Assembly (NCBI RefSeq): GCF_018408705.1
Contig: NZ_AP023420.1
Location: 1,426,001 to 1,490,000, forward strand
Direction: 5' to 3'
Length of the DNA: 64,000 bases
From: Pusillibacter faecalis
Lineage (GTDB): Bacteria; Bacillota; Clostridia; Oscillospirales; Oscillospiraceae
The notes below the pieces were generated by a model. The model searched no databases. It was not told the DNA's origin and was given only the letters and a program-made list of their open reading frames with translations. The translations under genes were made by a program, and so were the position numbers. Below are positions 33,314 to 56,644 of this stretch, in pieces. Position 1 is the stretch's first letter; the number at the start of each line of letters is the position of its first letter.

Positions 33314-33550
33314 ATGACCTTTTCTGAGCATCTTTTTTATCTGCGGGAAAGAAGAAAGTTGAAACAGTCCGATGTTGCGGACGCGATTGGGATCACTGTA
33401 CGGGGGTATCGGAACTATGAGCGGGGAACCCGGGAGCCGGCGATGTCCACGCTGATCGCTCTGGCGGATTTTTATGGGATTAGTCTCGATGAGCTGGTTT
33501 GCCGGAGGCGTGAGGGGGAGCCGTCCGATGGGACGGGGCAGGAGCCATGA
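33314..33550 (+). CDS. XRE-family regulator with element-derived C-terminus
   Basis: A 78-residue HTH_3 protein: LRERRKLKQSDVADAIGITV and YRNYERGTREPAMSTL cover the DNA-binding domain (about residues 10-55). The ATG at 33314 follows GGAAGGGG. The last nine or so codons and the stop come from repeat copy A, which begins at about 33522. It probably binds the twin palindromes between itself and the divergent DUF6809-like gene. Confidence 0.85.
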   Translation: MTFSEHLFYLRERRKLKQSDVADAIGITVRGYRNYERGTREPAMSTLIALADFYGISLDELVCRRREGEPSDGTGQEP

Positions 33551-33892
33551 TGATGGCTGGGCATTCCACCCCCCATTCTCTTTTTGTCTTGCCAAAAAGA
33601 GAATGGGCCGCACCCGCAGGGGGTATGCCGCATCCGTAAGCGGCACAGCCGCCAACGGCTGCGCAATGGACGGTCCAAGAGAAAAAACGCCGGGCGCGAT
33701 CTTGCGCGTTCGCACAAGTTCGCTTCAATACGGGGGTCTTCCGAATCAGTTCCGACCAAGTGAAGAAGTCCCCTACCGGCTCGCGCCGTCCCCTGGCAGT
33801 TGAAAGACATTCCCCCGCGAGTCTGGTGCAAAGGTAGCTTTGTTGGTACTCGTCGAGACTGCGTGCTTCTCTTTCCGCTGGCGCTACCCTGG
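33522..33892 (-). repeat. structured repeat element, copy A (long form)
   Basis: About 371 bp, running from CGTCCGATGGGA to CGCTGGCGCTACCCTGG. It is inverted relative to copy B. Conserved hairpins: 33573-33606 (14-bp perfect stem CCATTCTCTTTTTG with its complement) and 33696-33723 (12-position stem, ten paired). Strand given is the inferred sense direction. It carries the 56-nt module shared with B and C. I see no convincing coding function. Confidence 0.88.
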
Positions 33893-33922
33893 CGGTGGCT
33901 GAGAGCCAGCCGCCCTAAAGCA

Positions 33923-34295
33923 CCAGGGTAGCGCCAGCGGAAAGAGAAGGAGCAAGTATCCGGAACCACCAACGAGTTCTACTCCAAGCCCCTACACGCG
34001 GGAGCCAGCCCCCCGCGAGGGGGGAGTCCGGCGCGAGCCGGCAGAAGACCCCCGATCTTAGTCGGCACACATTCGGAAGACCCCCGTATTAAGCAAACTT
34101 GCACATACGTGCAAGTTTGCGCCCAGCGTCTTTTCTTTTGGACCGTCCATTGCGCAGCCGTTGGCGGCTGTGCCGCTTACGGATGCGGCATACCCCCTGC
34201 GGGTGCGGCCCGTTTTCTTTTCGGCAAGACGAAAAGAAAATGGGGGGTGCATTGCCAGGCTATCAACATAGCCTATACCCCGTCCCATCGGACGG
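33923..34295 (+). repeat. structured repeat element, copy B (long form)
   Basis: About 373 bp, an inverted copy of A separated from it by 30 bases that themselves fold (TGGCT-gag-AGCCA). Hairpins: 34093-34120 (perfect 12-bp stem GCAAACTTGCAC) and 34210-34243 (14-position stem with one G-T pair). It ends 56 bases before mutS and creates a spurious in-frame extension of the mutS open frame. Confidence 0.9.
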
Positions 34296-34351
34296 CCCCT
34301 CATAGAGACAGATACCGCTGCACACAGCGAAAAAGAGGTGAACCCCCTGTT

Positions 34352-36952
34352 ATGGCAGAACTAACCCCCATGATGCGCCAGTACCTGGAGATCAAAAAGG
34401 ACAACCCTGATTCGATTTTATTCTTCCGCCTGGGCGATTTCTACGAGATGTTTGACGAGGACGCCCGCACCGCCTCCCGGGAGCTGGATTTGACCCTTAC
34501 TTCCCGGGACCACGGCAAGCACGCAAAGCCCGCCGAGGAGCGGATTCCCATGTGCGGGATTCCCTATCACGCAAGCGAGGCCTATATCGCCCGCTTGATT
34601 GCCAAGGGCTACAAGGTGGCCATCTGTGAGCAGATGGAGGACCCCGCCACTGCCAAGGGTCTTGTTAAGCGGGATATCATCCGCGTCATCACCCCCGGCA
34701 CCGTCACCGACGCCGCGTGCCTGGACGACAAGTCCTCCAACTTCCTCTGCGGCATCTACCTCGACGAGCGCTCCGCGGCGGCGGCCTTCTGCGACGTCAC
34801 CACCGGCAAGGCCCACCTGACCGCCTTTTCCGGTGATGAGCGGGTGGAGCATATCATCAACGAGCTGGGCCGCTTCTCCCCCGCCGAGGCCATCTTGAAC
34901 GACGGCGCCTGGGCGGAGTCCCGGCTGCTGGAAACCCTGCGGGAGAAGTTCCACTGCCGGGTGGAGCGGGGCGGCGAGCGGCGCTTTCTCCTGGCTGACG
35001 CGGAAAAGAGCATCCGCCGCCAGTTTGGCGAGGAGGCGTTGAAGCGCCTGCCCGCCGGGAATCCGGCGGCGGCCATGGCCATAGGAGGGCTTCTCAGCTA
35101 CCTCTACGAGACCCAGAAAACGGACCTCAGCCACATCAACGACCTGGACTATTACGAACAGGGCGTGTTTTTGGAGCTGGACCTGACCGCCCGCCGGAAC
35201 CTGGAGCTGACGGAGACCTTGCGGAACAAGGAGAAGAAGGGGAGCCTCCTCTGGGTGCTGGACAAGACCAAAACCCCCATGGGTGGGCGGTGCTTAAGGA
35301 GCTGGCTGGAGCGGCCCCTGCTCTCCGTCACGGCCATCAACCGTCGTTCCAGCGCGGTTGCGGCGCTGGTGGAGGCCACCATCGCCCGGGAGGAGCTGAG
35401 CGCCGCCATGACGGGCCTGGGCGACATGGAGCGGCTTCTCGGCCGCATCGTCTACGGCACCGCCGGCGGGCGGGACATGGCGTCCCTCCGGGCGGCCATG
35501 GAACGGCTGCCGGAGATCAAGGCCCAGCTCGCCTCCGTGAAGGACCGCCGCCTGGGAGAGCTGGCGGCGGAGCTGGACGTGCTGGAAGACCTCCGGGACC
35601 GGATTGCCCGGACCATCTGCGACGAGCCGCCCTTCTCCGTCCGGGAGGGGGGCTTCATCCGGGACGGCTTTGACCAGGAGGTGGACCGTCTGCGGCACAT
35701 CCTCCAGGGGGGCAAGGGCGTCATTCCGGAGATGGAGGCCCGGGAGAAGGAGAAAACCGGCATCCGGACGCTGAAAATCGGCTATAACAAGGTCTTCGGA
35801 TACTACATCGAGGTCAGCAATTCGTTTAAAGATCAGGTGCCGGACACCTACATCCGCAAACAGACCCTGGTCAACGGCGAGCGCTTCATTACCCAAGAAC
35901 TCAAGGACTTGGAGCACGAGATTCTCACCGCCTCGGAGCGGGTGGTGGCGCTGGAGTACCAGCTCTTTACCGCCTTGCGGGAGGAGATCTCCGCCGCCGC
36001 GGTGCGCATTCAGAAAACCGCCGCCGCGGTAGCGGAACTGGACGCGCTGGTGTCCTTCGCCGCCGTGGCGGTGCGCAACAACTACTGCCGGCCGGATGTG
36101 GACGAGTCCGGGGTCATTGAGATTCAGGAGGGCCGCCACCCCGTGGTGGAGCGGGTTTTGAAGGACAGCCTCTTCGTCCCCAATCACACGTTTATGGGCG
36201 AGAAGGAGGAGCGGGTGGCCATCATCACCGGCCCCAACATGGCGGGCAAGTCCACCTATATGCGCCAGGTGGCGCTGATTGTGCTGATGGCCCAGATGGG
36301 GTCTTTCGTCCCTGCCGCCCACGCCCATATCGGCGTGGTGGACCGGATTTTCACCCGGATCGGCGCCAGCGACGACCTCTCCGCCGGGCAGTCCACCTTC
36401 ATGGTGGAGATGACGGAGGTCTCGGACATCCTGCACCACGCCACGAAGAACTCCCTGCTGATTCTCGACGAGATCGGCCGGGGCACCTCCACCTATGACG
36501 GCATGTCCATTGCCCGGGCGGTGCTGGAGTACTGCGCGGAGAAAAAGCGGGCAAAGACCCTCTTTGCCACCCACTACCACGAGCTGACGGAGCTGGAAAA
36601 CTCCCTGCCCGGGACCGTGAACTACAACATCGCGGTGAAGGCCCGGGGGGAGGAGATCATCTTCCTGCGCAAGATCGTCCCCGGCGGCGCGGACCGGAGC
36701 TATGGCATTGAGGTTGCGAGGCTTGCGGGGCTTCCGGAGAAGGTGGTGCAGCGGGCCAAGGCCATCTTAAAGGAGCTGGAGGCGGAAAACGGCGTGCAGT
36801 ACGTGGCCGCCCGGCGGGAGAGCGACCAGATGACCCTGGGCGCCCTGGGCGAGGGCGAGGTGCTGGACGCCATCCGCCGCTGCCAGCCGGACACGCTGAC
36901 GCCGATTGAGGCGATGAGCCTCATCTACGAGTGGAAACAGAAATTGCAGTAA
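34352..36952 (+). CDS. mutS: DNA mismatch repair protein MutS
   Basis: An 866-residue mismatch-recognition ATPase. The mismatch-reading Phe lies in FRLGDFYEMF near residue 25, Walker A GPNMAGKST near 627, and the later LILDEIGRGTSTYDG Walker B and FATHYHEL switch. The ATG at 34352 follows GAGGTGA by ten bases; the open frame upstream is repeat copy B read in frame and is excluded. It works with the MutL encoded at 39434. Confidence 0.98.
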   Translation: MAELTPMMRQYLEIKKDNPDSILFFRLGDFYEMFDEDARTASRELDLTLTSRDHGKHAKPAEERIPMCGIPYHASEAYIARLIAKGYKVAICEQMEDPATAKGLVKRDIIRVITPGTVTDAACLDDKSSNFLCGIYLDERSAAAAFCDVTTGKAHLTAFSGDERVEHIINELGRFSPAEAILNDGAWAESRLLETLREKFHCRVERGGERRFLLADAEKSIRRQFGEEALKRLPAGNPAAAMAIGGLLSYLYETQKTDLSHINDLDYYEQGVFLELDLTARRNLELTETLRNKEKKGSLLWVLDKTKTPMGGRCLRSWLERPLLSVTAINRRSSAVAALVEATIAREELSAAMTGLGDMERLLGRIVYGTAGGRDMASLRAAMERLPEIKAQLASVKDRRLGELAAELDVLEDLRDRIARTICDEPPFSVREGGFIRDGFDQEVDRLRHILQGGKGVIPEMEAREKEKTGIRTLKIGYNKVFGYYIEVSNSFKDQVPDTYIRKQTLVNGERFITQELKDLEHEILTASERVVALEYQLFTALREEISAAAVRIQKTAAAVAELDALVSFAAVAVRNNYCRPDVDESGVIEIQEGRHPVVERVLKDSLFVPNHTFMGEKEERVAIITGPNMAGKSTYMRQVALIVLMAQMGSFVPAAHAHIGVVDRIFTRIGASDDLSAGQSTFMVEMTEVSDILHHATKNSLLILDEIGRGTSTYDGMSIARAVLEYCAEKKRAKTLFATHYHELTELENSLPGTVNYNIAVKARGEEIIFLRKIVPGGADRSYGIEVARLAGLPEKVVQRAKAILKELEAENGVQYVAARRESDQMTLGALGEGEVLDAIRRCQPDTLTPIEAMSLIYEWKQKLQ

Positions 36953-37220
36953 AGCGGCGGACCGCGCCGGGAGGCGCGTCAAGGGTTTTGCGGGAAGCAA
37001 GCCCTTTGCCAGCCGCAGCGAGCATACAGGGCGCAACCGCCGCAAAGCGGCGGCACTTGGCGCGGAGGAGAAATCGGACGGATTGATTCCGGCCGGTTTG
37101 CGTGAAATGCGGGGTCCACGCCGCGCAGGGCGCGGTGGGGTGCGCCAGCCGCTGCCGCCGGTGCAGAGACCTGATCCGCGAGAGGCGGCGCGGAGGAAAT
37201 CAAAAGCAAAGGGCGAGAGC

Positions 37221-37928
37221 ATGCCGAGAAGAAAGACAACAACCTATATGTCGCCGGGGGAGCAGATCGGGGGAACCGTGTTCTTTATGATCTATCTGCT
37301 GGTGCTGCCCTTTGCCGCGGGGCCGCTGTTCCGTCTGGCGGGAGGGCTGCTGGGGGTCACGATCTCCGGCGCCATGCAGAGCATTTTGACCTATTATATC
37401 CTCTTTGCCGTGAGTATCATCGTGTTCCACGCCTTTCTCGCGAGAACCACCCGGCACCTGGCGGAGAATCTGGGTCTTGCCGTCAAGACGCTGGGCCTGG
37501 GCCTGGTGGGGCTGTACGGCCTGAATGAGCTGGTGTTCCGGCTCAGCAATCTGCTCATCAACAACCGGACGAACCTCAACAACAACACCATTTCCGCCCA
37601 GATCGACGACGCGCCCGCCATGACGGTGGTCATCGTGATTCTCCTGGCTCCCTTTGTGGAGGAGGTGCTCTTCCGGGGGCTGGTGTTTGGAAATTTAAAG
37701 GGGAAGAGCCGCGCGGCGGGGTACCTGGTGAGCTGTCTGCTCTTTGCCCTGCTGCACGTGTGGCAGTTTGCCCTGGTGAATCAGGATATCACCTATTTTT
37801 TGCTGATGGTGCAGTATCTGGTGCCGGGGCTGGTGCTGGCCTGGACCTATGAGCACAGCGGCACGCTGTGGACGGCCATCGCTCTGCACGCCGCGGCCAA
37901 CGCACTGAGCGTGTGGACCATGTTATGA
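37221..37928 (+). CDS. CPBP-family intramembrane metalloprotease
   Basis: A 235-residue membrane protein of the CAAX protease/bacteriocin-processing (Abi) family. The catalytic motifs are PFVEEVLFRGLVFG (EExxxR), SCLLFALLHVWQF (first His) and a final helix with HAAANAL. The ATG at 37221 follows AAGGGCGAG; the longer frame upstream lacks a site. In the 268 bases before it, a GC-rich hairpin CCGCCGC-aaa-GCGGCGG (37037-37053) may end mutS transcription. Substrate unknown. Confidence 0.88.
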   Translation: MPRRKTTTYMSPGEQIGGTVFFMIYLLVLPFAAGPLFRLAGGLLGVTISGAMQSILTYYILFAVSIIVFHAFLARTTRHLAENLGLAVKTLGLGLVGLYGLNELVFRLSNLLINNRTNLNNNTISAQIDDAPAMTVVIVILLAPFVEEVLFRGLVFGNLKGKSRAAGYLVSCLLFALLHVWQFALVNQDITYFLLMVQYLVPGLVLAWTYEHSGTLWTAIALHAAANALSVWTML

Positions 37929-37941
37929 AAGGAGAGCGCGG

Positions 37942-38439
37942 ATGTCCGGCGAAGTGAAAGTGAGAAAGAGCGACTGGCAGCGGACGCTGGCGGCGGTGCT
38001 TCTGGGGTGCCTTTTGGACGGCGTCCTCATGTATCTTTTTTTGCGCCGGGTGGAGCTGACAGGGCTTGCCCGGGGGATCGTGGCGGCGCTGGGGGCCTAT
38101 GTGCTCTTCCGGCTGTTCTACCCCATGCTGAGGGGCCTGTTTCCCGGCGGCGGAGAGCGGACGCTTCTCTGGCACGTGACGCCGGATACCCTGGTCCTGG
38201 GGCGGGAGGAAATCCCCCGCGGCGCCATCAAAGCGGTTCACTGCTGGCCCAACCGGGACGCCCTGGGGCACGCCGGGGCGGGCTGGACCGTCAATATTGA
38301 GACCACGGGGAAAAACCACCTGCTCCGCTCCCTGACCGAGGGGGAGGGGCTGGACCAGTCCGTCCGGCAGCTCCGGGCCCTGGTGGTGGCCCTGGGATAC
38401 GGCGGGCAGTGGGCGGGAAGCCCGGACGTGCCCTCCTAA
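37942..38439 (+). CDS. membrane protein of unknown function
   Basis: A 165-residue protein with two hydrophobic helices (about residues 14-35 and 43-62) followed by a soluble domain rich in beta-like segments (TLLWHVTPDTLVLGREEIP, WTVNIETTGKNHLL) that could be PH-like. AAAGGAG precedes the ATG, 13 bases after the CPBP gene, so the two are probably co-expressed. I do not recognise the family. Confidence 0.65.
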   Translation: MSGEVKVRKSDWQRTLAAVLLGCLLDGVLMYLFLRRVELTGLARGIVAALGAYVLFRLFYPMLRGLFPGGGERTLLWHVTPDTLVLGREEIPRGAIKAVHCWPNRDALGHAGAGWTVNIETTGKNHLLRSLTEGEGLDQSVRQLRALVVALGYGGQWAGSPDVPS

Positions 38440-38467
38440 AAACCCCCTGAGAAAAGAGAGAAGCAAC

Positions 38468-39388
38468 ATGGATTTTTTTGCAAGCCTTTCCAATATGAGC
38501 GTGGTGCTGGCGGGCATTGCCGCCGGGTACCTTGCCAATAAGCTGGGAATTCTGGGCGGGGAGACGGACCGGAAGCTCACCAAGCTGATTTTGACGATCA
38601 CCATGCCGGCGATGACCCTGGGAGCAGTGGCCACCAGCGAGGAGCTGCCGGACCTTGCCACGCTGGCCGGTATTTTGGAGGCCGCCGCCGCATTTTATAT
38701 CATCGGGTTTGCCCTGGCCGCTCTGCTGCCCCGGCTGTTGGGGGGCACCGCGGAACAAAAGAGCGTATGGCGCTTTGCGCTGTGCTTTTCCAATGTGGGG
38801 TTTATCGGCATCCCGGTGTGCACGGCATTTCTGGGAGAGGGGGCCATGCTCTACGCGGTGATTCTGACCCTTCCCTTCAATCTGATTTCCTACTCCATGG
38901 GTCCCGTGATCCTGACGGGAGGCATGAAGAACTTTGACGCCCGGAAAATGTTTCTGACGCCCACGGTGGTATCTTCGTTTCTGGCGCTGGTGATGACGCT
39001 GCTGCGCCTGCGCCCGCCGAGGGTGGTGGGAGAATGCCTGGAATTTGTGGGCGACATGACCGTACCGATGTCTCTTTTGATTATCGGCTCGCTGCTTACC
39101 GCTACATCCTTCCGGCAGGTGCTCTCCTCCCCGCGGCTGTGGAGCCTTGCGGCGGTGCGGCTGGTGGCGATGCCCATGCTGCTGGGCCTGGCCCTGCGTC
39201 CGCTGCATCTGGAGGCTATGGCCGTGAATGTGACGGTGCTGCAGATGGCCATGCCGGTGGCGGCTAACGGCTCCATGCTGGCCATGGAGTACGGCGGCGA
39301 TGTGGAGAGCATGGCGCAGGCCACATTTTTGACCACCGTCTGCGCCATGGTGACGGTACCTCTCATAGCCACCGTACTGCTGGTATAG
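38468..39388 (+). CDS. AEC-family (auxin efflux carrier-like) transporter
   Basis: A 306-residue membrane protein with about ten hydrophobic segments in two halves. The pattern LAGIAAGYLANKLGIL, FSNVGFIGIPVC and VTVLQMAMPVAANGSMLA is typical of AEC permeases, which transport organic acids in bacteria (for example malate, MleP-type). It lies between the unknown membrane gene and mutL with short spacing. Confidence 0.88.
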   Translation: MDFFASLSNMSVVLAGIAAGYLANKLGILGGETDRKLTKLILTITMPAMTLGAVATSEELPDLATLAGILEAAAAFYIIGFALAALLPRLLGGTAEQKSVWRFALCFSNVGFIGIPVCTAFLGEGAMLYAVILTLPFNLISYSMGPVILTGGMKNFDARKMFLTPTVVSSFLALVMTLLRLRPPRVVGECLEFVGDMTVPMSLLIIGSLLTATSFRQVLSSPRLWSLAAVRLVAMPMLLGLALRPLHLEAMAVNVTVLQMAMPVAANGSMLAMEYGGDVESMAQATFLTTVCAMVTVPLIATVLLV

Positions 39389-39433
39389 GCAGCAAAACCC
39401 AAGAGGCGCGGGACTGTGCGAAAGGAGAACAAC

Positions 39434-41359
39434 ATGCCTCACATTCAACAACTCAGCTCTCACGTTGCGGACCTGATTGCCGCCGGCGAGGTGGTGGAGC
39501 GGCCGGCCAGCGTGGTCAAGGAGCTGGTGGAAAACGCCATGGACGCCGGCGCCACCGCCGTGAGGGTGGAAATCCGCCGGGGCGGAATGGGTCTCATCCG
39601 GGTTTCAGACGACGGCTGCGGCATCGCGCCTGTGGAACTGCCCACGGCCTTTTTGCGCCACGCCACCTCTAAGCTGCGCTCGGCGGAGGACCTGGGGAGC
39701 ATCGGCACCCTGGGCTTCCGGGGTGAGGCGCTGGCGGCCATTGCCGCCGTGAGCCGGGTGGAGATCCTAACCCGGCCAAAGGGCGCCCAGAGCGGCGCGT
39801 CCCTCCATCTGGAGGGCGGCGTGCCGGGACCTGTGGAGGAGGCCGGCGCGCCGGAGGGCACCACCGTGACGGTGCGGGACCTCTTTTACAATACGCCGGC
39901 GCGGCTCAAATTTATGAAGAAGGACAGCGCCGAGACCGCCGCCGTGGCGGGGCTTTTACAACATCTGGCCATGTCCCATCCGGACATTTCCTTTCAGCTG
40001 ATCAAGGACGGCGCCGAGGCGCTCCACACCCCCGGCGACGGGAAGCTGGAGTCCGCGATCTACGCCGCTCTGGGCCGGGAGTTTGCCCGGAGCCTGCTGG
40101 CCGTGGAGGGCCGGGGCGGAGAGGTGGCGGTGGAGGGCTATGTTACCATGCCCCTCCAGAGCCGGGGCTCCCGGTCCATGCAGGTGTTCTTTGTCAACGG
40201 CCGGTTTATCAAGTCTCAGCTCCTGACGGCGGCACTGGAGGAGGGCTACCGCAACCAGATCATGAAGGGGAAATTTCCCGGGTGCGTCCTGTCGGTCACG
40301 CTGCCGGTGACGGCGGTGGATGTGAACGTCCACCCCGCCAAGACCACGGTGAAGTTTGCCCGGGAAAAGGAGGTCTTTGACGCGGTCTACCACACGGTGC
40401 TGGACTGCCTGAGCGCCCGGGGAGGCGCGGTGCAAGTCCCCAGGAGCGTGGAGCAGGTGGTGCTTCCCCGGCAGGACTTCTTCCAGTCCCTGGACGCCAA
40501 GAGCTTTCGGGAGCGGAGGGAGCAGGCGGACTCCCAGCCCCGGAGCGCGGCGAGGCCCGCCTGGGACAGCGAGCGGCGCTCCACGGCCCGTGTGGCGGAC
40601 AGCGCCCCTCCGGCCTCCGGCTATGGGAGGTTCCGGGACGCGGGCGGCGCCCTGGGAAGGCCTCCGGCATCGGCGGCCGGCCCAACAGAGGCAGAGACTT
40701 CGCCGGCCGGTAAGCCGGAAAAGCCGTTTGTCCCCGCGATTCCCCGGCAGAGCCGGGAGCTGCCGGAGCAGCAGACCATGGAGCCCCTCCGGGAGGAGGC
40801 GCCCTGGCGGATCGCCGGAGAGGTGCTGCGCACCTACATCGTGTGCGAGAGCGAGGAGGGGTGCGTGTGGCTCATTGACAAGCACGCCGCCCATGAGCGG
40901 ATCAACTTTGACCGGCTGAAGGCATCCCGGACGGCGCCCATGCGGCAGATGCTGCTGAAGCCCGCCATTGCGGAGCTGAGCCGGGAGGACGCGGCGGCGG
41001 TGCTGGACAATCTGCCGCTGTTGGAGGAGTTGGGCTTTTCCTGCGAGGATTTCGGCGGCGGCGCGGTTTTGGTCCGGGAGGTTCCGGCAGATCTGGACGC
41101 CGGGGAGACCTCCGCCGCATTGGAGGAGTTTGCCGGAACGCTGCGCGGCGGCGGGACCTTGGATGAAAAACGGGAGGAGCTTTTGCATACGATTGCCTGT
41201 AAGTCCGCCATCAAGGGCGGCTGGAAAAGCGACGTGTCGGAGCTGCGGGTGCTGGTGGAGAAGGTCCAGAGCGGCGAGGTCCGCTACTGTCCCCACGGCC
41301 GCCCGGTTGCGGTAAAGCTGAGTCGATACGAGCTGGAAAAGCTCTTCAAGCGGGCGTGA
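39434..41359 (+). CDS. mutL: DNA mismatch repair protein MutL
   Basis: A 641-residue mismatch-repair ATPase. GHKL motifs: ELVENAMDAGAT, SDDGCGI and GFRGEAL within the first 110 residues. A long low-complexity linker (about 355-460) leads to the C-terminal domain, which carries DKHAAHERI, the ACKSAIKGG stretch and CPHGRP, the metal-site motifs of nicking MutL proteins. AAAGGAG precedes the ATG. It should nick the new strand after MutS binding, as expected in a genome without MutH. Confidence 0.97.
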   Translation: MPHIQQLSSHVADLIAAGEVVERPASVVKELVENAMDAGATAVRVEIRRGGMGLIRVSDDGCGIAPVELPTAFLRHATSKLRSAEDLGSIGTLGFRGEALAAIAAVSRVEILTRPKGAQSGASLHLEGGVPGPVEEAGAPEGTTVTVRDLFYNTPARLKFMKKDSAETAAVAGLLQHLAMSHPDISFQLIKDGAEALHTPGDGKLESAIYAALGREFARSLLAVEGRGGEVAVEGYVTMPLQSRGSRSMQVFFVNGRFIKSQLLTAALEEGYRNQIMKGKFPGCVLSVTLPVTAVDVNVHPAKTTVKFAREKEVFDAVYHTVLDCLSARGGAVQVPRSVEQVVLPRQDFFQSLDAKSFRERREQADSQPRSAARPAWDSERRSTARVADSAPPASGYGRFRDAGGALGRPPASAAGPTEAETSPAGKPEKPFVPAIPRQSRELPEQQTMEPLREEAPWRIAGEVLRTYIVCESEEGCVWLIDKHAAHERINFDRLKASRTAPMRQMLLKPAIAELSREDAAAVLDNLPLLEELGFSCEDFGGGAVLVREVPADLDAGETSAALEEFAGTLRGGGTLDEKREELLHTIACKSAIKGGWKSDVSELRVLVEKVQSGEVRYCPHGRPVAVKLSRYELEKLFKRA

Positions 41360-41460
41360 GGCGCAGACGGGGCGGCGGCCGTGGGGACGAATGGGATGGA
41401 AACGTCCGCGCCTGCGGCGCGAGCGGCCGCCCGGTTGCGGTGAAGCTGAGTCGATATGAG
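41298..41460 (+). repeat. short direct duplication of the mutL 3' end
   Basis: A 36-bp segment of mutL (41298-41333, coding GRPVAVKLSRYE) recurs at 41425-41460 with only two base changes, 127 bases downstream. The sequence between does not code for anything I recognise. Confidence 0.88.
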
Positions 41461-41528
41461 CGCTCTTTGGACTTGCGGCGGGAAAGAAAACGGCCCAAAC
41501 AGGGCAGCATATCTATGGAGGAGCCGGT

Positions 41529-41703
41529 ATGGCAGAGAAACGGTTTGTGAAGACCTACACCGCCATGGACATGATGGAGATCTGGGTGGACCGGGAGCCC
41601 GGGGGGAAACGACCTGTGGTATTCCAGCGGCAACGCCGGCGGGCTGGCACCTCTGCTGGACCGGGATGGAAAGATCACAACGGTTTTTGATCAGGAGGAA
41701 TGA
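41529..41703 (+). pseudogene. DUF6440-like gene with a one-base frameshift
   Basis: The ATG at 41529, six bases after GGAGGA, opens MAEKRFVKTYTAMDMMEIWV and then DREPGG; after a GGGGGGAAA run the zero frame runs into foreign sequence, but the +1 frame continues NDLWYSSGNAGGLAPLLD and ends FDQEE at 41703. Joined, the product is about 57 residues and matches the DUF6440 pattern (RF..Y, EIWVDRETG, GLTPLLD). It is thus a frameshifted gene, a homopolymer sequencing error, or a slippery site. Confidence 0.75.
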
Positions 41704-41707
41704 AAGC

Positions 41708-42298: not shown

Positions 42299-42301
42299 CC
42301 G

Positions 42302-47782: not shown

Positions 47783-47805
47783 AAGGACCGCCGGAGGCGG
47801 TCCTT
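47783..47805 (-). terminator. terminator for the minus-strand permease gene
   Basis: Perfect 10-bp stem AAGGACCGCC/GGCGGTCCTT; on the minus strand it runs into TTTTTCAC. Confidence 0.75.
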
Positions 47806-47923
47806 CGAGACTGTTGAAAAAACGGAGAGGGAGATCCCTGCGAAAGAGACCGGGGCTTCCATCACCCGTTTCTCAGACGGGTTCAGTGGTTTGAAACACG
47901 GCCGCAGATTGGAGAGCGCGGCC

Positions 47924-48907: not shown

Positions 48908-48920
48908 GAAACAACTCCTC

Positions 48921-50132: not shown

Positions 50133-50260
50133 TTGGTTTGCCTCCCGACCCCGCCGGGCGGCGGGGCAAATATTTATCAGTGTACCGCGTTTTGCCGTGA
50201 TTTGCAATACATACTCACGGCGGGGCTGGGGCATACTGGGCATGAAAGGAAGTGTTTCCA

Positions 50261-50698
50261 GTGGATCTCACACCCAAGGAATACCAACAGTATGTGGAGC
50301 AAAAGGCAAAAAAGTCCCCCATCGTCAAAGATACGGCGCTGGCCTTTGTGATCGGCGGGTTCATCTGCGTGCTGGGTCAGGCCATCCAGACGGCCTGGGG
50401 CGCCGCGGGCCTTGGCAAGGAGGACGCCGGTACCGCCACCTCCTGCACGCTGGTATTTCTCTCCGCCCTGCTGACGGGCCTGAATCTCTACAACAAGCTG
50501 GCGCGCTTCGGCGGCGCGGGAACTCTGGTGCCGATCACCGGTTTTGCAAATGCCGTGGTCTCCCCTGCCATCGACTTTAAAAGCGAGGGATTTGTCACCG
50601 GCATGGCGGCAAAAATGTTTACCGTGGCCGGACCGGTGATCGTGTTCGGCACACTGGCGTCCGTTATTTATGGAATTCTTCTGAAGCTGTTTGGATAA
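50261..50698 (+). CDS. spoVAC: stage V sporulation protein AC
   Basis: A 145-residue membrane protein of the SpoVAC/SpoVAE family, part of the channel that moves dipicolinic acid into the forespore. The pattern DLTPKEYQQYVEQKAKKSPI, FVIGGFICVLGQAI and GAGTLVPITGFANAVVSPAI is diagnostic. The GTG at 50261 is chosen because AAAGGA lies ten bases before it. No spoVAD or spoVAE follows: a terminator comes next, so this copy stands alone. Confidence 0.93.
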   Translation: MDLTPKEYQQYVEQKAKKSPIVKDTALAFVIGGFICVLGQAIQTAWGAAGLGKEDAGTATSCTLVFLSALLTGLNLYNKLARFGGAGTLVPITGFANAVVSPAIDFKSEGFVTGMAAKMFTVAGPVIVFGTLASVIYGILLKLFG

Positions 50699-50714
50699 CC
50701 CCCTGCAAAGCCGA

Positions 50715-50741
50715 CAATGCCGCCCAGATTGGGCGGCATTG
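50715..50741 (+). terminator. terminator after spoVAC
   Basis: CAATGCCGCCCA/TGGGCGGCATTG perfect 12-bp stem, with an additional outer GCCGAC/GTCGGC pairing. Confidence 0.75.
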
Positions 50742-50796
50742 CTGTCGGCGGCGAGGAGGCCACGGGAGGACGCCGAAGGGCGCCGCAAGCGCAAAA

Positions 50797-50823
50797 GATT
50801 GCCGCCCAGACCGGGCGGCAATC
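50797..50823 (-). terminator. terminator for the minus-strand XRE gene
   Basis: GATTGCCGCCC/GGGCGGCAATC stem that runs into TCTTTTGC on the minus strand. Confidence 0.75.
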
Positions 50824-50825
50824 CA

Positions 50826-51074
50826 TTATTCCTCAAACAATTTAGAGACGGAAATTTCCAGGGCTCTTGCAATACAAAAAAGCGTGTATAGGGAGGGTGC
50901 GTGGATGCGGTCGCCGTTATTGGCCTCCAGCTGGCTTAGGAAGCTCCAACTGCACTCCGCCCGGTCCGCAAGCTGTTCTTGGGTGTAGCCTCGTTTTTTT
51001 CGGTAGTAAGCGATTTTCAGGCCAAGGAGGCGATACTCTTCCCGAAAAGCTTCTTTTTGTTCCTCTTTCCGCAT
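50826..51074 (-). CDS. XRE-family helix-turn-helix regulator
   Basis: An 82-residue HTH_3 protein: LKIAYYRKKRGYTQEQLADR and CSWSFLSQLEANN span about residues 19-55, followed by LYTLFCIARALEISVSKLFEE. The ATG at 51074 follows GGGGAGGGG. It is most like the regulator at 7481 in domain layout. No target is obvious. Confidence 0.85.
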   Translation of the reverse strand: MRKEEQKEAFREEYRLLGLKIAYYRKKRGYTQEQLADRAECSWSFLSQLEANNGDRIHAPSLYTLFCIARALEISVSKLFEE

Positions 51075-51299
51075 GTGCGCCCCTCCCCTCTTTCCTATCA
51101 TGGTATCATTTGGGAAATCTGATTTTTATAGGTTATCCACCTGGATATATATGTAAATCGCATGTGTCTTTCAAATCGGTGCAAAATCAGATGGGAGAAG
51201 CAGACCTGCGGAACGCGCCTGACTTGGCGTTTTTCCGCAAGGACCGGAGAGGCTGAATCCAAAACAGGGGAGCGCGGGAGCCGCCGCGCTCCCCTGTCC

Positions 51300-52688
51300 T
51301 CATCCAAGCGCCACACCGACAATCAAAAACACCAGTGTCAGCACCAGAAAATATAACATCAGCTTCCAGACATATTTGACCCACCGATCGTAGGGAACGT
51401 GCCCCAGGGCCAGGGCGCCCATCACCACCGCAGCGGTGGGGGTGATGATGTTGACAAGGCCGCTGGCAGACTGGAAGGCAGTCACCACCAGGTCTCCGCC
51501 CACCCCGGCGAACTTGCCCAGGGGCGCCATGATGGGAATGGAGAGCGTGGCAAGTCCGGAGGAGGACGGGATCAGAATGGTCAGCGGCAGGTAGATGAGG
51601 AATACCAGCAGCACAAAGCTGATGGACCCGGCGCCTGCCAGGGCTTCCTCACCCCAGTGGAGCACGGTGTCGGTGATGGCGCCGTCGTTCATCAGCACCG
51701 TGATGCCCCGGCTGATGCCGATGATCAGCGCGACGCCCAGAAGATCCGCGCAGCCGGCCACAAAGGTGTCCGCGATCTCATCTTCTCTCTGGCGGTCGAT
51801 CAGACCGATGATGACGCCGCTCACCAAAAACAGGGCGCTGAGCTCCGGGAACCACCAGCCGAGAACCGGCAGCGGCAGGCCCATCTCGTCAAAGGGAATG
51901 ACGGCGTAGACCATCAGGAGGAACGTCAGGGTAAAGACCGCCATGATGACCTTCCGCTTGGGGGTAAAGGGCACCGTCTCATCCATTGCCACGTGAATGT
52001 TTCCGGAGCCCACGCCCACCACGGATTTGGAGGGATTCTTTTTCACCTTGGCCGCGTAGGCCATCACAAACCAGATGGCGGCGGACTCAAAGACAATCCA
52101 CTGAATGATCCGCAGCAAAATGCCATCCCCCAGGGACACCCCGGCAAAGCCCGCCGCGATGCCCGTTGCAAAGGGGTTCACCGTGGAGCAGATGACGCCG
52201 GCCCCGGCGCCCAGCAAAATAACGGAGATGCCCACCACCGCGTCATAGCCCGCCGCAAGAAACACCGGAATCAGCAGCGGATAAAAGGCCATGGTCTCCT
52301 CCCACATGCCGTAGGTGGTGCCGCCCAGGCCGAAGAGCAGCATCAGGATGGGGATGAGCCACTTCTCCCGGCCGCCCAGGCGCTGGATGATGCTGGCGAC
52401 GCCCGCATCCACCGCGCCGGTTTTCATCACAACGCCCAGGAACCCGCCCACCATCAGAATGAACACGCACACATCCACGGCGTCGTAAAAGCCGGAGAAG
52501 GCCGCCTTCAGCACATCGCCCACCCCCTGGGGGTTCGGGTCCACCGCGTGGTAGGTGCCCGCCACAGGCACGCCGTCCACGTAGTCATAGGCGCCTGCCG
52601 GGATCACCCAGGTGGCCGCGGCCACCAGGATGATCAGCAGAAAGAGGATGGTATAGGCGGTGGGCATGCGGAATTTGGAGTCTTTCAC
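51300..52688 (-). CDS. YfcC-family amino acid antiporter
   Basis: A 462-residue membrane protein with about twelve helices, of the YfcC/ArcD2-like group in the C4-dicarboxylate/ion-transporter superfamily. Typical stretches are MPTAYTILFLLIILVAAATW, GGTTYGMWEETMAFYPLLIP and IPSSSGLATLSIPIMAPLG. Its start overlaps the arcB stop by four bases (ATGA), so it belongs to the arginine deiminase operon and is probably the arginine/ornithine exchanger. Confidence 0.88.
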   Translation of the reverse strand: MKDSKFRMPTAYTILFLLIILVAAATWVIPAGAYDYVDGVPVAGTYHAVDPNPQGVGDVLKAAFSGFYDAVDVCVFILMVGGFLGVVMKTGAVDAGVASIIQRLGGREKWLIPILMLLFGLGGTTYGMWEETMAFYPLLIPVFLAAGYDAVVGISVILLGAGAGVICSTVNPFATGIAAGFAGVSLGDGILLRIIQWIVFESAAIWFVMAYAAKVKKNPSKSVVGVGSGNIHVAMDETVPFTPKRKVIMAVFTLTFLLMVYAVIPFDEMGLPLPVLGWWFPELSALFLVSGVIIGLIDRQREDEIADTFVAGCADLLGVALIIGISRGITVLMNDGAITDTVLHWGEEALAGAGSISFVLLVFLIYLPLTILIPSSSGLATLSIPIMAPLGKFAGVGGDLVVTAFQSASGLVNIITPTAAVVMGALALGHVPYDRWVKYVWKLMLYFLVLTLVFLIVGVALG

Positions 52689-53683
52689 TTGCCGATGGTG
52701 GCAACCATCACGGCCTTGATGGTGTGCATCCGGTTTTCCGCCTCGTCAAAGACGACGCTGTGGCGTCCGCGGAACACCTCGTCCGTGACCTCCCGGATAT
52801 CCACGCCCTTGTCGTGCCACTCCTTGGCAAGCTTGGTCTCAAAGTCGTGGAAGGAGGGCAGGCAGTGCATATAGAGGACCTCTGGATTGCCAGTGGCCTT
52901 CAGGGTTTCCTCCGTCACCCGGTAGGGGGAGAGAAGCTCTGAGCGCTTGGGGATCAGCTCTTCCTCGCCCATGGAGGCCCAGATGTCGCCGTAGATCACG
53001 TCCGCGTCCTTGATGTCGTTCATGTTGTCGGTGATCTCGATGAGGCCGCCGGTCTCCCGGGCGGTGGCAAAGGTGGACTTCACGATCTCCGGGTCCATCT
53101 GCTTAGCCAGCTCCTCCGGGCCGATGCCCACAAAGTGCATGCCCATCTTGGCCGCACCGATCATCCAGGCATAGCACATGTTGTTTCGCACGTCGCCGGG
53201 GAAAACCACCTTCACCTTGTTCAGGGGCTTGTGGACGTGCTCCTCAATGGTCAGCATGTCCGCCAGAATCTGGGTGGGGTGGTCCGCGTCGGTCAGACCG
53301 TTCCACACGGGTACGCCGGCGTACTTTGCCAAGTCCTCTACCACCTTCTGGTCAAAGCCACGGTACTCGATGCCGTCAAAGAACCGGCCCAGCACCTTGG
53401 CAGAGTCCTCCAAGGACTCCTTCTTCCCCATCTGGGAACTGCCCGCGTCCAGATAGGTCACGTGGGCGCCCTCCTGAGTGGCCGCCACCTCAAAGGAGCA
53501 CCGGGTGCGGGTGGAGGTCTTTTCAAAGAGCAGCACGATGTGCTTGCCCTGCATGGTGGGCTCGCACACGCCGCTGCGGCGCTTGGCCTTCAGATCCCGG
53601 GCCAGGTCCAGCAGGTAACGGATTTCCGCGGGGGTAAAGTCCGCCAGAGTCAGAAAGCTCCGGCCTTTCAAATTGACTGCCAT
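52685..53683 (-). CDS. arcB: ornithine carbamoyltransferase (catabolic)
   Basis: A 332-residue transcarbamylase. Carbamoyl-phosphate site FEKTSTRTRCSFE, the GLTDADHPTQILADM ornithine-side motif and the HCLPSFHD catalytic Cys motif are all present. Between arcA and the antiporter it should work in the arginine deiminase pathway, converting citrulline to ornithine and carbamoyl phosphate. The ATG at 53683 follows GAAGGAG. Confidence 0.93.
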   Translation of the reverse strand: MAVNLKGRSFLTLADFTPAEIRYLLDLARDLKAKRRSGVCEPTMQGKHIVLLFEKTSTRTRCSFEVAATQEGAHVTYLDAGSSQMGKKESLEDSAKVLGRFFDGIEYRGFDQKVVEDLAKYAGVPVWNGLTDADHPTQILADMLTIEEHVHKPLNKVKVVFPGDVRNNMCYAWMIGAAKMGMHFVGIGPEELAKQMDPEIVKSTFATARETGGLIEITDNMNDIKDADVIYGDIWASMGEEELIPKRSELLSPYRVTEETLKATGNPEVLYMHCLPSFHDFETKLAKEWHDKGVDIREVTDEVFRGRHSVVFDEAENRMHTIKAVMVATIGK

Positions 53684-53732
53684 GATGAATTTCTCCTTCA
53701 ATTCGTTGTTGGTTGACAGGGAGGTGCGCCCC

Positions 53733-54956
53733 TCAGGGGTCCTCCCTCCACAGGGGCATGCTCATGCACCGGGGGCCGCCCCGGCCCCGGCTCAGCTCCG
53801 CGCTGGGGATGGTGTGGATGCGGATGCCCGCCTCCTCCAGGGAGCGGTTGGTGACATAGTTCCGGGAGTAGACCACCACCTCGCCGGCGCCGATGGCCAG
53901 CGTGTTGCTGCCGTCGCTCCACTGCTCCCGGGCGGCGTCGATCTCGCTGCCCTCTCCGCAGGGGATGAGGGTGACGCGGTCCAGGTTCAGGTGTTCCTTC
54001 AGGATGTCCTCCAGCCGGCCGTCCTCCTGGCGGATTTTCACCCGGCGGTTCTCGTCCAGCTCCATGACAAACACGGTCAGCTGTCCGAGGATGTTGGGGT
54101 GAACGGTGAACTTGTCCCGGTCCACCATGGTAAAGACCGTGTCCAGGTGCATGAAGGAGCGGGTCTTGGGGATGTTAAAGGCCAGGATTTTCCGGAAGGT
54201 CTTGCTCTGGGAGAGCACCGTCTCCGCCAGAGCGTCAATAGAGTCCTCCTGGGTCCGCTGGGAGATGCCTACCGCCAGCACCTGGGGGGAGAGCACCAGA
54301 ATATCGCCGCCCTCCAGGGAGCTGGTCTCGCCCCGGTCGTACCAGCGGGGCGCGTTGCGGTACTCCGGGTGGTGCTCAAAGATGAATTTGCCAAAGAGGG
54401 TCTCCCGGTTTCGGGTGGCGGTGTGCATTTTGTGGATAGAGACGCCGGTGCCGATGGTGGCAAAGGGGTCCCGGGTAAAATAGAGGTTGGGCAGAGGGTC
54501 CACCGCGAAGGGGTAATCGTCCCCGGCGGCGGAGAGATAGTCCCCCAGCTTTCCGCCCGTAACGCGCAGCTGCCCTTTGCGCACGCCGGCCATCATGGCG
54601 GACACCATTTCCTTGTCCGACATGCCGCCAAAATAGTCCGCCAGCAGGCCGCGGGTCCGCTCGTCCAGGGTCCCGGCCTCGTCCAGGAACTGGCGGATCA
54701 GGTCCTGGCGCACCTCCGGCGAGGTGAGGGAGCCCACCACCAGGTCCGTGAGGTACACCACCTCCACCCCCTGGTTTCGCAGACAGTCCGCAAAGGCGTC
54801 GTGCTCCCGCTGGGCCTCCTTCAGATAGGGGATATCGTCAAACAACAGCCGTTCCAAATACTCCGGCATCAAATTCTCCAGCTCCGCGCCGGGCCGGTGC
54901 AGCAGCACCTTTTTCAGCCGCCCGATCTCGGAGGTATTATGGATTCCAGTCTCCAA
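53733..54956 (-). CDS. arcA: arginine deiminase
   Basis: A 407-residue guanidino-modifying enzyme, of normal length. Visible motifs are [18 protein letters not shown] at the N-terminus, [35 protein letters not shown] (catalytic His) and the C-terminal nucleophile [10 protein letters not shown]. The start codon is TTG, nine bases after AAAGGAG. It hydrolyses arginine to citrulline and ammonia, giving ATP and acid tolerance. Repeat copy C lies just upstream. Confidence 0.97.
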
Positions 54957-55061
54957 ATGGGTTCACTCCTTTTTTGAATCACTCCGGGATTAGGGTCTGT
55001 GAAATTTTCAGTTTCATACGTGGAAAATTGATTTTTTTGGCCGCCATGGGAGGCGGGGGGT

Positions 55062-55428
55062 CGTCCGATGGGATGGATATAGGCTATGTTGATAGCCTGG
55101 CAATCCACCCCCCATTTTCTTTTCGTCTTGCCGAAAAGAAAACGGGCCGCACCCGCAGGGGGTATGCCGCATCCGTAAGCGGCACAGCCGCCAACGGCTG
55201 CGCAATGGACGGTCCAAAAGAAAAGACGCTGGGCGCGAACTTGCACATGCGTGCAAGTTCGCTTAAAACGGGGGTATTCCGAATATGTGCCGACTGGAAT
55301 CGGGAATCTTCTACCGGCTCGCGCCATTCTCCGGCATTTGAAGTACATTTCCCCGCGGGTTTGGTTTGGCGGAGACTTCGTTGGGGGTTCCGGACACCCG
55401 TTGCTTCTCTTTCCGCTGGCGCTCCCCT
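55062..55428 (-). repeat. structured repeat element, copy C (long form)
   Basis: About 367 bp in the same orientation as copy A, ending CGCTGGCGCTCCCCT. It carries a GGCTAT-gttg-ATAGCC hairpin near its left end, the 14-position stem, the 56-nt module, and a perfect 12-bp stem GCGAACTTGCAC/GTGCAAGTTCGC (55235-55262). It lies about 105 bases upstream of arcA, divergent to it in window coordinates. Strand given is the inferred sense direction. Confidence 0.9.
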
Positions 55429-55702
55429 ATGCGTAATGGGGAGCTAGGGTGTTGGGGGGGGTGCGCAGGAGCTGGGATGCTCGCTGTTCCAGCGCGGTTT
55501 CTCTGGAATAACCGAGAAAGAGATGCAGAAAACGGCTGTCGTCGTAAGCTTCTTGCAGGAGACGGCGGGCAAGAAGGATTTGAGGCGCGGCGCCCCATGT
55601 CCGCGCCCGCTCCAGGCCCGCCACGCGCAGGCTTAGCTGCCAGCGGAGAAGCCCTAAAATGGCCCGCCATCGCTCTGGCTCAATGTTTCGATATTTCCGC
55701 AT
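55427..55702 (-). CDS. hypothetical protein between repeat copies
   Basis: A 91-residue Arg-rich, helical protein (KYRNIEPERWRAILGLLRWQ then LLARRLLQEAYDDSRFLH). I do not recognise it. A good GAAGGAGGGA ribosome site nine bases before the ATG at 55702 supports real translation; the last codons touch the end of repeat copy C. It is the only gene enclosed by the oppositely oriented copies C and D. Confidence 0.5.
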   Translation of the reverse strand: MRKYRNIEPERWRAILGLLRWQLSLRVAGLERARTWGAAPQILLARRLLQEAYDDSRFLHLFLGYSRETALEQRASQLLRTPPNTLAPHYA

Positions 55703-55808
55703 CTATCGTTCCCTCCTTCTGCCCCGATTCTATCAGGAAATTTCGTCCCAAAAGACCCGCACCGCAGGTCATTTTCAAATTTCCCGAAAATTTTCCGCCC
55801 CGCAAGCA

Positions 55809-56082
55809 CCAGGGCAGCGCCAGCGGAAAGAGAAGCAACGGGTGTCCGGAACCTCCAACGAAGTCTCCGCCAAACCGAACCCGCGGGAGCCAGTCCTCCG
55901 CGACGGAACACGTCCGGCGCGAGCCGGCAAAAGATTTCCGATTCCAGTCGGCACATATTCGGAAGACCCCCGTCTTAAGCAAACTTGCACGCACGTGCAA
56001 GTTTGCGCCCAGCGTCTTTTCTTTTGGACCGTCCACAGCCCGTTTTCTTTTCGGCAAGACGAAAAGAAAATGGGGGGTGGAT
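55809..56082 (+). repeat. structured repeat element, copy D (short, truncated)
   Basis: About 274 bp in the orientation of copy B, starting CCAGGGCAGCGCC. It lacks the 56-nt module (direct junction GTCCAC to GCCCG, as in E) and its last roughly 40 bases after the GGGGGGTGGATT block. The perfect 12-bp stem GCAAACTTGCAC is at 55979-56006. It joins directly onto a truncated XRE gene. Confidence 0.88.
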
Positions 56083-56085
56083 TCC

Positions 56086-56259
56086 TCCGACAAAGTCGGA
56101 ACCACTCAGCCAGCGGACTGGCTGCCGCTGCAAGGCATTGAGTTCAATAAGAACACGGTGCAGTGCATTGAGAGTGGAAACCGCTTTGTGACGGATTTGG
56201 AACTCAAGGCAATCGCACAGGTGCTTGGCGTTACGGCTGACGAGCTTTTATCAGAGTAA
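56086..56259 (+). pseudogene. 5'-truncated XRE-type regulator
   Basis: The frame ends GIEFNKNTVQCIESGNRFVT and DLELKAIAQVLGVTADELLSE, the second half of an XRE domain of the type with a strictly conserved R/K-FVTD segment. The first half of the domain is missing; in its place stands repeat copy D, with no plausible start codon. It is a remnant cut by insertion or recombination at the element. Confidence 0.72.
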
Positions 56260-56260
56260 A

Positions 56261-56287
56261 GGGAGAGGCATCGCCTCTCTTTTATTC
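56261..56287 (+). terminator. terminator of the truncated XRE gene
   Basis: GAGAGGC-atc-GCCTCTC followed by TTTTATT, directly after the stop codon. Confidence 0.85.
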
Positions 56288-56334
56288 ATATTTGCCCAGG
56301 TGCGCCTTTTCCGCTCCTTCGTTTTCCACACGCA

Positions 56335-56644
56335 CCAAGGCAGCGCCAGCGGAAAGAGAAACAAAGGGTGTCCGGAACCTCCAACGAAGTCTCCGCCAAA
56401 CCAAACCCGCGGGGAAATGTACTTCAAATGCCGGAGAATGGCGCGAGCCGGCAGAAGATTCCCGATTCCAGTCGGCACATATTCGGAAGACCCCCGTTTT
56501 AAGCGAACTTGCACGCACGTGCAAGTTTGCGCCCAGAGTCTTTTCTTTTGGACCGTCCACGGCCCGTTTTCTTTTCGGCAAGACGAAAAGAAAATGGGGG
56601 TGGATTGCCAGACTATCAACATAGCCTATATCCATCCCATCGGA
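56335..56644 (+). repeat. structured repeat element, copy E (short form)
   Basis: About 310 bp, orientation of copies B and D. It lacks the 56-nt module but keeps both ends, including ATCAACATAGCCTAT and CCCATCGGA. Its 12-position stem (56503-56530) has a single G-T pair, halfway between the A-T of B/D and the G-C of C. The middle part is closest to copy C. Confidence 0.9.

What the first reader, a model, noticed from the sequence alone, without database searches (positions are those of the whole stretch)
33522..56644. Five-copy family of a roughly 270-373 bp structured non-coding repeat
Copies A (33522-33892), B (33923-34295), C (55062-55428), D (55809-56082) and E (56335-56644) share both ends (TCCGATGGGA at one, AGCGCCAGCGGAAAGAGAA at the other) and an ordered set of conserved blocks with variable stretches between. 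They have no transposase, no terminal inverted repeats and no consistent protein frame. I know of no named element with this layout. It could be a non-autonomous mobile element or a repeated structured RNA.
Basis: seen in the sequence. Interest (0 to 1): 0.85.

Follow-up and report, generated by a model that had tools for sequence, protein, structure and literature searches.

The report
Mobile inverted repeat with triplex hairpins
The five repeats are arms of an apparently mobile, gene-less element scattered through one family of bacteria, and each arm carries a hairpin followed by a mirror-image third strand that changes letter for letter with it, which is what a three-stranded nucleic-acid helix would need.

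Summary
The five copies are real, but they are arms. A and B are the convergent arms of one 774-bp inverted-repeat element; C and E look like the arms of a second, with D an extra arm between. The unit (mostly 420-775 bp, sometimes enclosing an XRE regulator and a small DUF6809-like gene) was found in 63 of 86 genomes searched in the genus and 54 of 400 in the family (28 of 106 genera). An empty site in a sister genome and arm-by-arm comparison support an old, dispersing, non-autonomous unit. Rfam and ten full-text searches gave no name for it; Y1 transposases are missing from several carriers. The surprise lies inside each arm. A pyrimidine/purine hairpin (Y-R) is followed, usually after 17 nt, by a purine tract S, the mirror image of R. 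S follows Y letter by letter in parallel: of 44 asymmetric types 24 are perfect parallel, none antiparallel; own arm 86 of 100, other arm of the same element 3 of 100. A triple helix would explain this; no Watson-Crick partner does. Known intrastrand triplex motifs (BoxC/TM_ECO) share the order of tracts only. Triplex formation, the mobilising enzyme and DNA-versus-RNA form are inferred.

The parts
33522..34295 (.). Complete inverted-repeat element: arms A(+) and B(-) with a 30-nt centre
   Evidence: inverted repeats of 209, 62 and 51 nt; alignment
33522..33892 (+). arm A
33923..34295 (-). arm B
33522..33535 (+). terminal palindrome CGTCCGATGGGACG of A
34281..34294 (-). terminal palindrome of B
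33576..33603 (+). hp2 hairpin of A (Y TTCTCTTTTT, then R)
33677..33686 (+). third tract S of A (AAGAGAAAAA), parallel complement of Y
34213..34240 (-). hp2 hairpin of B (Y TTTTCTTTTC)
34130..34139 (-). third tract S of B (AAAAGAAAAG)
33609..33666 (+). optional REP-like module in A
34150..34207 (-). optional REP-like module in B
55062..55428 (+). arm C (left arm of the second element)
55115..55142 (+). hp2 of C
55216..55225 (+). S of C
55148..55205 (+). optional REP-like module in C
55427..55702 (-). small ORF between C and D (91 aa, no Pfam or NCBIfam match at E 0.1); putative enclosed gene
55809..56082 (-). arm D, an extra arm between the small ORF and the HTH-like remnant; lacks the TCCGATGGGA end and the module
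56043..56070 (-). hp2 of D
56016..56025 (-). S of D
56083..56259 (+). C-terminal part of an XRE/HTH-like reading frame between D and E (recognised by eye only; the XRE profile did not find it)
   Evidence: translation; no hit
56335..56644 (-). arm E, 96% complementary to C over 221 nt
56567..56594 (-). hp2 of E
56540..56549 (-). S of E
33299..33550 (+). XRE-family regulator (HTH_3, E 1.2e-16) whose 3' end runs into arm A
32970..33215 (-). divergent small ORF (weak DUF6809 match, E 0.037, below cut-off)

Best explanation
The repeats are the two convergent arms of a non-autonomous, foldback (MITE-like) mobile element. SHOWN: the unit is arm(+)-centre-arm(-); both arms spread together; it sits between genes at many different sites; it can enclose or lie beside an XRE/small-ORF gene pair; each arm contains hairpin hp1, hairpin hp2 (Y-R) closed by a further stem, in part of the genus a terminal palindrome, and a tract S that is the mirror image of R and co-varies with Y and R letter by letter. 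INFERRED: hp2 and S form a triple helix (read on one strand as purine motif, T-A.A and C-G.G; on the other as pyrimidine motif, T.A-T and C+.G-C). INFERRED: the structure acts on DNA that is single-stranded or under torsion, as the end-recognition signal for a transposase supplied in trans, which was not found.
For: Convergent pairs: 110 pairs and 60 single arms among fetched loci, repeats of one place included; 64 unique pairs. Arms of one element are 0.59 identical on average, yet each finds on average a 0.85 match in another element; 7 of 82 arms match their own partner best (41 of 57 pairs could be aligned). Distribution: 63 of 86 genus genomes; 54 of 400 family genomes, 28 of 106 genera. 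Element 2 of L137 (G024) is missing in G038 (left flank 97% over 423 bp, right flank 91% over 70 bp, then 71%) and in G046, G057 and G059, but present in G018. Watson-Crick covariation: 95.9% of cells paired against 86.3% shuffled, 15 of 24 pairs changed on both sides against 9.4. Mirror covariation: mean parallel identity 0.843 against 0.681 shuffled (maximum 0.743 of 5000) and 0.545 antiparallel over 50 types; 24 of 44 asymmetric types perfect parallel, 0 antiparallel; 15 of the 24 remain if prefixes of longer tracts are dropped, and 174 of 206 parsed arms are perfect over the run. In 50 elements whose two S tracts differ, own-arm Y||S is exact in 86 of 100 arms, cross-arm in 3 of 100. In seven genomes of six other genera 17 of 22 parsed arms match over the whole run, two of them with symmetric tracts. 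2 of 167 arms hold an exact Watson-Crick partner for S between 250 nt outward and 400 nt inward. Wobble pairs: 1 of 350 cells in hp2, none in its closing stem.
Against: No transposase or autonomous relative was found; only Y1 was searched for by family. No target-site duplication is evident at the cleanest empty site, and the G038 site for element 3 keeps a terminal-palindrome-like scar, so some 'empty' sites may be losses. Several insertions are shared between species and hence old. The tracts are A/T-rich, for which a purine-motif triplex would be weak (general knowledge). 20 of 44 asymmetric types are not perfect: most miss one to four letters or a register, and three have no relation. Types and arms are not phylogenetically independent. 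One position (A.C in 89 of 132 arms, never G.T) reads as G.U on the other strand, a hint of RNA.
Confidence: 0.6

Rival explanations
1. The arms are selected as RNA: in the strand read from the element's centre outwards, the U-rich S' lies in the groove of hp2 as U.A-U / C.G-C triples and protects or regulates transcripts, for instance as a 3' UTR of enclosed XRE and small-ORF genes.
For: [quoted passage not shown] the pair below the tract is A.C in 89 of 132 arms, G.U on the other strand; enclosed genes read into the arms in that orientation; 47 of 59 pairs with both flanks called lie between co-directional genes (crude gene calls); the hp1-bearing arm is downstream in 26 and upstream in 13, p 0.053, orthologues not removed.
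Against: No excess of G.U over A.C in hp1 (7 against 9) or hp3 (38 against 35, in 71 of 203 arms), almost no wobble in hp2 or its closing stem; no Rfam match; both orientations occur on each strand because the unit is an inverted repeat.
Confidence: 0.2
2. The arms are the ends of a larger selfish cassette made of a divergent small ORF (DUF6809-like) and an XRE regulator; arm-only pairs are its deletion derivatives.
For: 28 of 97 unique elements adjoin or enclose an XRE gene: 21 adjoining with the 3' end toward the arm (4 of them on the inner side of single arms), 3 pointing away, 3 enclosed, 1 further inner case; XRE density 0.26/kb within 500 bp against 0.023/kb beyond 1 kb; enclosed pairs in L106, L119, L145.
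Against: 69 of 97 elements have no XRE nearby, and where one is found it more often lies outside the arms. At miaB-mutS 11 of 37 parsed genomes have XRE genes without arms and one (G060) has arms without XRE. The XRE profile was trained on element-linked genes, which may inflate the contrast.
Confidence: 0.12
3. A REP/BIME-type element moved by a RAYT/Y1 transposase.
For: Inverted hairpin pairs between genes; Y1 genes in 7 of 14 genomes searched.
Against: No Y1 match in the carriers G000, G046, G059 and G040 (18, 43 or more, 29 and 36 matches of R1; G059 and G040 are only 67% and 73% complete); size and anatomy differ.
Confidence: 0.03
4. The mirror relation is an accident of low-complexity tracts in a few subfamilies inherited together.
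For: Tracts are short and T/A-rich; the commonest types are nearly symmetric; shuffled identity is already 0.68.
Against: 24 perfect parallel and no antiparallel among 44 asymmetric types, 15 after dropping prefixes; 86 of 100 own-arm against 3 of 100 cross-arm; 12-16-nt matches such as TCCTCTTCTTCTC/AGGAGAAGAAGAG, some in other genera.
Confidence: 0.05

Closest known systems
Intrastrand triplex motifs of bacteria (BoxC / PIT / TM_ECO, class II; Holder et al. 2015, PMC4666352; abstract, sections 10, 15, 16 and passages seen)
   Same: Order pyrimidine stem - purine stem - second purine tract on one strand; between genes, many copies; class II reading.
MITEs / foldback elements of prokaryotes (review PMC10969869; listing, start of abstract and one term search seen)
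   Same: Short, non-coding, inverted repeats, dispersed between genes, mobilised in trans (assumed).
   Different: Arms of about 200-370 bp filled with hairpins; no transposase with matching ends found; no target duplication seen; can enclose genes.
REP / BIME elements with RAYT (recalled)
   Same: Hairpins in inverted pairs, between genes, mosaic; a REP-like module is nested inside.
   Different: Much larger; no Y1 transposase match in several carriers. REP head tetranucleotides were not looked for.
Modular intergenic repeats such as pneumococcal BOX or Neisseria NIMEs (recalled, not looked up)
   Same: Optional internal modules.
   Different: No covarying triplex tract known to me; no sequence comparison made.

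Membership tests
Class II intrastrand triplex motif | Y stem, purine stem and mirror purine tract in this order on one strand | tested here: met
   174 of 206 parsed arms perfect over the pyrimidine run; all five window copies
Class II intrastrand triplex motif | short loops (1-6 nt, or 0-10 nt in the older search) | tested here: not met
   R-to-S linker is 17 nt in 182 of 206 parsed arms, 12 nt or more in the rest
Class II intrastrand triplex motif | forms a triplex in vitro | not testable with these tools
   needs CD, NMR or footprinting
MITE | terminal inverted repeats | tested here: met
   convergent arms; outermost ends differ between the two arms in many elements
MITE | target-site duplication | tested here: inconclusive
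   none evident at G024 element 2 against G038, where 10 bp differ
MITE | ends shared with an autonomous transposon | tested here: inconclusive
   none seen in the loci looked at; only Y1 transposases were searched for by family
MITE | dispersed, non-coding, polymorphic presence | tested here: met
REP/RAYT | Y1 (RAYT) transposase in the carrier genome | tested here: not met
   no match in carriers G000, G046, G059, G040; two of these assemblies are incomplete
Known structured RNA (Rfam 15) | match above gathering score | tested here: not met
   0 in window; Gut-1 and ssnA hits in ten relative loci lie outside the element pairs

The most novel reading that the evidence does not exclude
A mobile element whose two ends are specified by a three-stranded nucleic-acid structure that evolution maintains base triple by base triple: the first case known to me (nothing of the kind was listed) in which letter-by-letter covariation across genera points to selection on an extended triple helix of 9-16 triplets in bacteria.
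Probability: 0.5. Interest if true: 0.92.

Novelty: new variant of a known kind. Interest (0 to 1): 0.8.

Why it matters
Whether triplex DNA or long nucleic-acid triple helices do anything in living bacteria is a long-standing open question, because a sequence motif alone cannot show selection on the triplex. Here nature supplies many compensatory triples, so the structure can be tested by single-letter changes. It also adds a widespread class of repeats, undescribed as far as my ten searches reach, tied to XRE regulators and found beside genes that I recognised by eye as mutS, uvrA and glmM.

Tried and rejected
Rejected: Rfam families; RAYT/Y1; a free-standing target palindrome (the 3 places with CGTCCNATNGGACG in G000 are all at arm ends; the 57 in five other genomes were only looked over, most lie beside R1 matches); an inter-arm duplex S1:S2' as the reason for S (S differs between the arms in 50 of 66 pairs); a Watson-Crick partner inside the arm (2 of 167; a looser 9-nt version gave 42 of 90 exact and 60 with one mismatch against 11% for shuffled queries, which I put down to nearly symmetric tracts that match hp2 itself, and replaced). 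A first anchoring rule for S gave parallel identity 0.82 over 81 types and was replaced by a fixed rule without a purine requirement. An earlier regular-expression pass gave 183 parallel, 13 ties, 0 antiparallel, many of them nearly symmetric. Arms fetched from G128 and G330 were not parsed by the fixed rule and are in no count or later. For one search I aligned 35 of the 40 arms selected. The stem-a counts printed were out of register and are not used. RNA-strand wobble test: inconclusive, leaning DNA. Orientation bias 26 to 13, p 0.053. Collections: no plasmid match; no exact viral-contig match; 7 phage records matched, the four partial rows listed at 60 bp over the REP-like module. Of 24 genome contigs matches to the inner-end 19-mer, 9 are in one uncultured Oscillibacter assembly; the other 15 were not examined. 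Papers: (listings; PMC10969869 and PMC4666352 opened as stated) gave no description of this element.

Full report
1. What is there. The five stated copies are real but paired: A(+) and B(-) converge on a 30-nt centre and form one inverted repeat; C(+) and E(-) are 96% complementary over 221 nt. D lacks the TCCGATGGGA end; D and E lack an internal module. That module occurs alone at many sites of the genus, so it is a separate REP-like repeat nested in arms. The genome has further pairs near 880 kb and 1849 kb and a half near 2355 kb. The gene names miaB, mutS, uvrA and glmM used below were recognised by eye from translations, not assigned by a call.

2. Distribution. A covariance model of the outer arm core (R1, 103 positions, 27 sequences) matches 63 of 86 genomes of the genus (several reach the limit of 43 scored candidates), 54 of 400 of the family in 28 of 106 genera, and at E<=1e-5 5 of 394 in the order, own genome included, two of them outside the family. 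The searches used Infernal's stricter filters, so these are lower bounds. G024, G046 and G018 have 56, 69 and 70 matches, the single-contig genome G038 22, some of them the two strands of one hairpin. By BLAST with copy C, 47 of 99 genomes searched (own included) matched, all of one genus, none of the 38 outside it. Record titles name uncultured Oscillibacter for one carrier assembly; the taxonomic name of the window's genus was not given by any search.

3. The unit. Matches come as +/- pairs: 110 pairs and 60 single arms among fetched loci, repeats of one place included; 64 unique pairs, mostly 420-775 bp. Some larger ones enclose genes: a small ORF and an XRE regulator in L106, L119 and L145. 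Identity between the two arms of one element averages 0.59 (41 of 57 pairs could be aligned), while the best match in another element averages 0.85; 7 of 82 arms match their own partner best. In many elements of G018, G046, G024 and G038 one arm carries hp1 and the terminal palindrome next to hp2 and the other does not. So both arms disperse together as one unit. In the window genome itself the two arms of an element are unusually alike (A/B 0.80; C/E 96%).

4. Mobility. At miaB-mutS, 41 genomes were fetched and 37 had both genes in the stretch: 6 have no insert (gap 13-100 bp), 11 have XRE genes but no arms, 5 have another insert with neither, 14 have XRE genes and arms, and G060 has arms only; in G052 and G006 the arms lie on both sides of the XRE gene. 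In G024 (L137), element 2 is missing in G038 (left flank 97% over 423 bp; right flank 91% over 70 bp, then 71%), and no element lies at that place in G046, G057 or G059, whose sequence there differs; G018 has it. Element 3 is missing in G038, where a palindrome-like scar remains, and in G046; G057 has it. I saw no target duplication. Several other insertions are shared by two or more species.

5. XRE association. In a sample without the loci found through mutS, 28 of 97 unique elements adjoin or enclose an XRE gene: 21 adjoin it with the gene's 3' end toward the arm (4 of them on the inner side of single arms), 3 point away, 3 enclose it, 1 is a further inner case; 69 have none. XRE genes are about eleven times denser within 500 bp (24 genes) than beyond 1 kb (4 genes). 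The profile was trained on such genes, so this is suggestive, not proof. In the window genome 4 of 5 loci show it; the fifth has an HTH-like remnant recognised by eye.

6. Watson-Crick structure. On 35 of the 40 arms selected at under 90% similarity, hp1, hp2 and the stem closing hp2 are 95.9% paired (shuffled 86.3%), with 15 of 24 pairs changed on both sides somewhere (shuffled 9.4); slid versions fall to about 50%. The structure was taken from the same sequences, which favours it over the slid versions.

7. The mirror tract. After hp2 (Y, loop, R) comes a linker, 17 nt in 182 of 206 parsed arms and longer mainly where the module is inserted, then tract S. S is the complement of Y read in the same direction, that is, the mirror image of R. 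Over 50 distinct types mean parallel identity is 0.843, antiparallel 0.545, shuffled 0.681 with a maximum of 0.743 in 5000; slides of 1-3 reach at most 0.63 parallel and 0.65 antiparallel. Of 44 asymmetric types of 9 nt or more, 24 are perfect parallel and none perfect antiparallel; 15 of the 24 are left when prefixes of longer tracts are dropped. The 20 imperfect types include last-letter differences, register shifts, one arm with the S of another type, and three with no relation. In all, 174 of 206 parsed arms are perfect over the run. Within 66 elements with both arms parsed (orthologous copies in related genomes included), 50 have different S tracts: own-arm agreement over 9 nt is exact in 86 of 100 arms, cross-arm in 3 of 100. 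In seven genomes of six other genera 17 of 22 parsed arms match over the whole pyrimidine run, two of them with symmetric, uninformative tracts; the other five (four of G192, one of G184) match 6 to 10 letters. Of 167 arms with an asymmetric perfect tract, 2 have an exact Watson-Crick partner for S between 250 nt outward and 400 nt inward, both near +390, about where the other arm lies.

8. Reading of it. Watson-Crick pairing cannot produce a parallel complement. A triple helix can: on the strand as written, T-A.A and C-G.G triples with S antiparallel to R (purine motif, class II); on the other strand, T.A-T and C+.G-C with S' parallel to R (pyrimidine motif). The linker starts and ends at the base of hp2, which fits S running along it, and long stems go with long S tracts (up to 16 nt). 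A/T-richness favours the pyrimidine reading (general knowledge, not tested). DNA or RNA is open: wobbles are nearly absent in hp2 (1 of 350 cells) and its closing stem and balanced between strands in hp1 and hp3, which speaks for DNA; one pair below the tract (A.C in 89 of 132, never G.T) and a weak orientation bias (26 to 13, p 0.053) speak for RNA.

9. Known kinds. Bacterial intrastrand triplex motifs (BoxC/PIT/TM_ECO; PMC4666352, of which I saw the abstract, sections 10, 15, 16 and passages) share the order of tracts. That paper reports no link of TM_ECO with mobile elements and allows loops of 1-6 nt; a term search for 'covar' found nothing in its main text. My ten paper searches listed no description of this element or of a covarying triplex in a mobile unit; most subscription papers are not held there.

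10. Verdict. A real, widespread, non-autonomous inverted-repeat element, MITE-like in behaviour, with a new internal feature. The covariation is shown; triplex formation, its role in mobility and the enzyme are inferred.

Noticed in passing
window 33609-33666, 34150-34207, 55148-55205; L031-L050: A REP-like double-hairpin module of about 56-60 bp is dispersed on its own through the genus, in several of the 12 loci viewed inside longer hairpins and once directly beside a tRNA-like gene end (L044); 60-bp stretches of it also match unannotated faecal phage records.
   Followed up: partly
window 32970-34345; L183-L222: The region between miaB and mutS (names by eye) holds nothing, XRE/small-ORF pairs, other inserted genes, these elements, or combinations, in different species.
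   Followed up: partly
window 32970-33215 and 55427-55702; L106:2721-2966; L119:2531-2776; L145:1962-2186: Small ORFs (74-91 aa) next to XRE genes; L119's matches DUF6809 at E 2.8e-5 just under the cut-off, the window's at E 0.037, the others not.
   Followed up: partly
L115, L027, L202: A second repeat-like stretch (CTGCGGGAGC...GGCCGCC type) lies between hp2 and hp1 in one arm of several elements (seen by eye).
   Followed up: no
L271 (G038:C1:3520700-3521700): The element-free site keeps a terminal-palindrome-like sequence, suggesting loss by internal deletion.
   Followed up: no
L149:61-138, L127:785-832: Rfam matches Gut-1 and ssnA in relative loci, outside the elements.
   Followed up: no
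G750 (another family of the order): Eight R1 matches, five with the same score, outside the family; possible transfer or contamination.
   Followed up: no
L126 and L131 (G046, G018): Arms 1.5-1.9 kb apart enclose other small genes of unknown function between genes that look like frr and uppS (names by eye).
   Followed up: no
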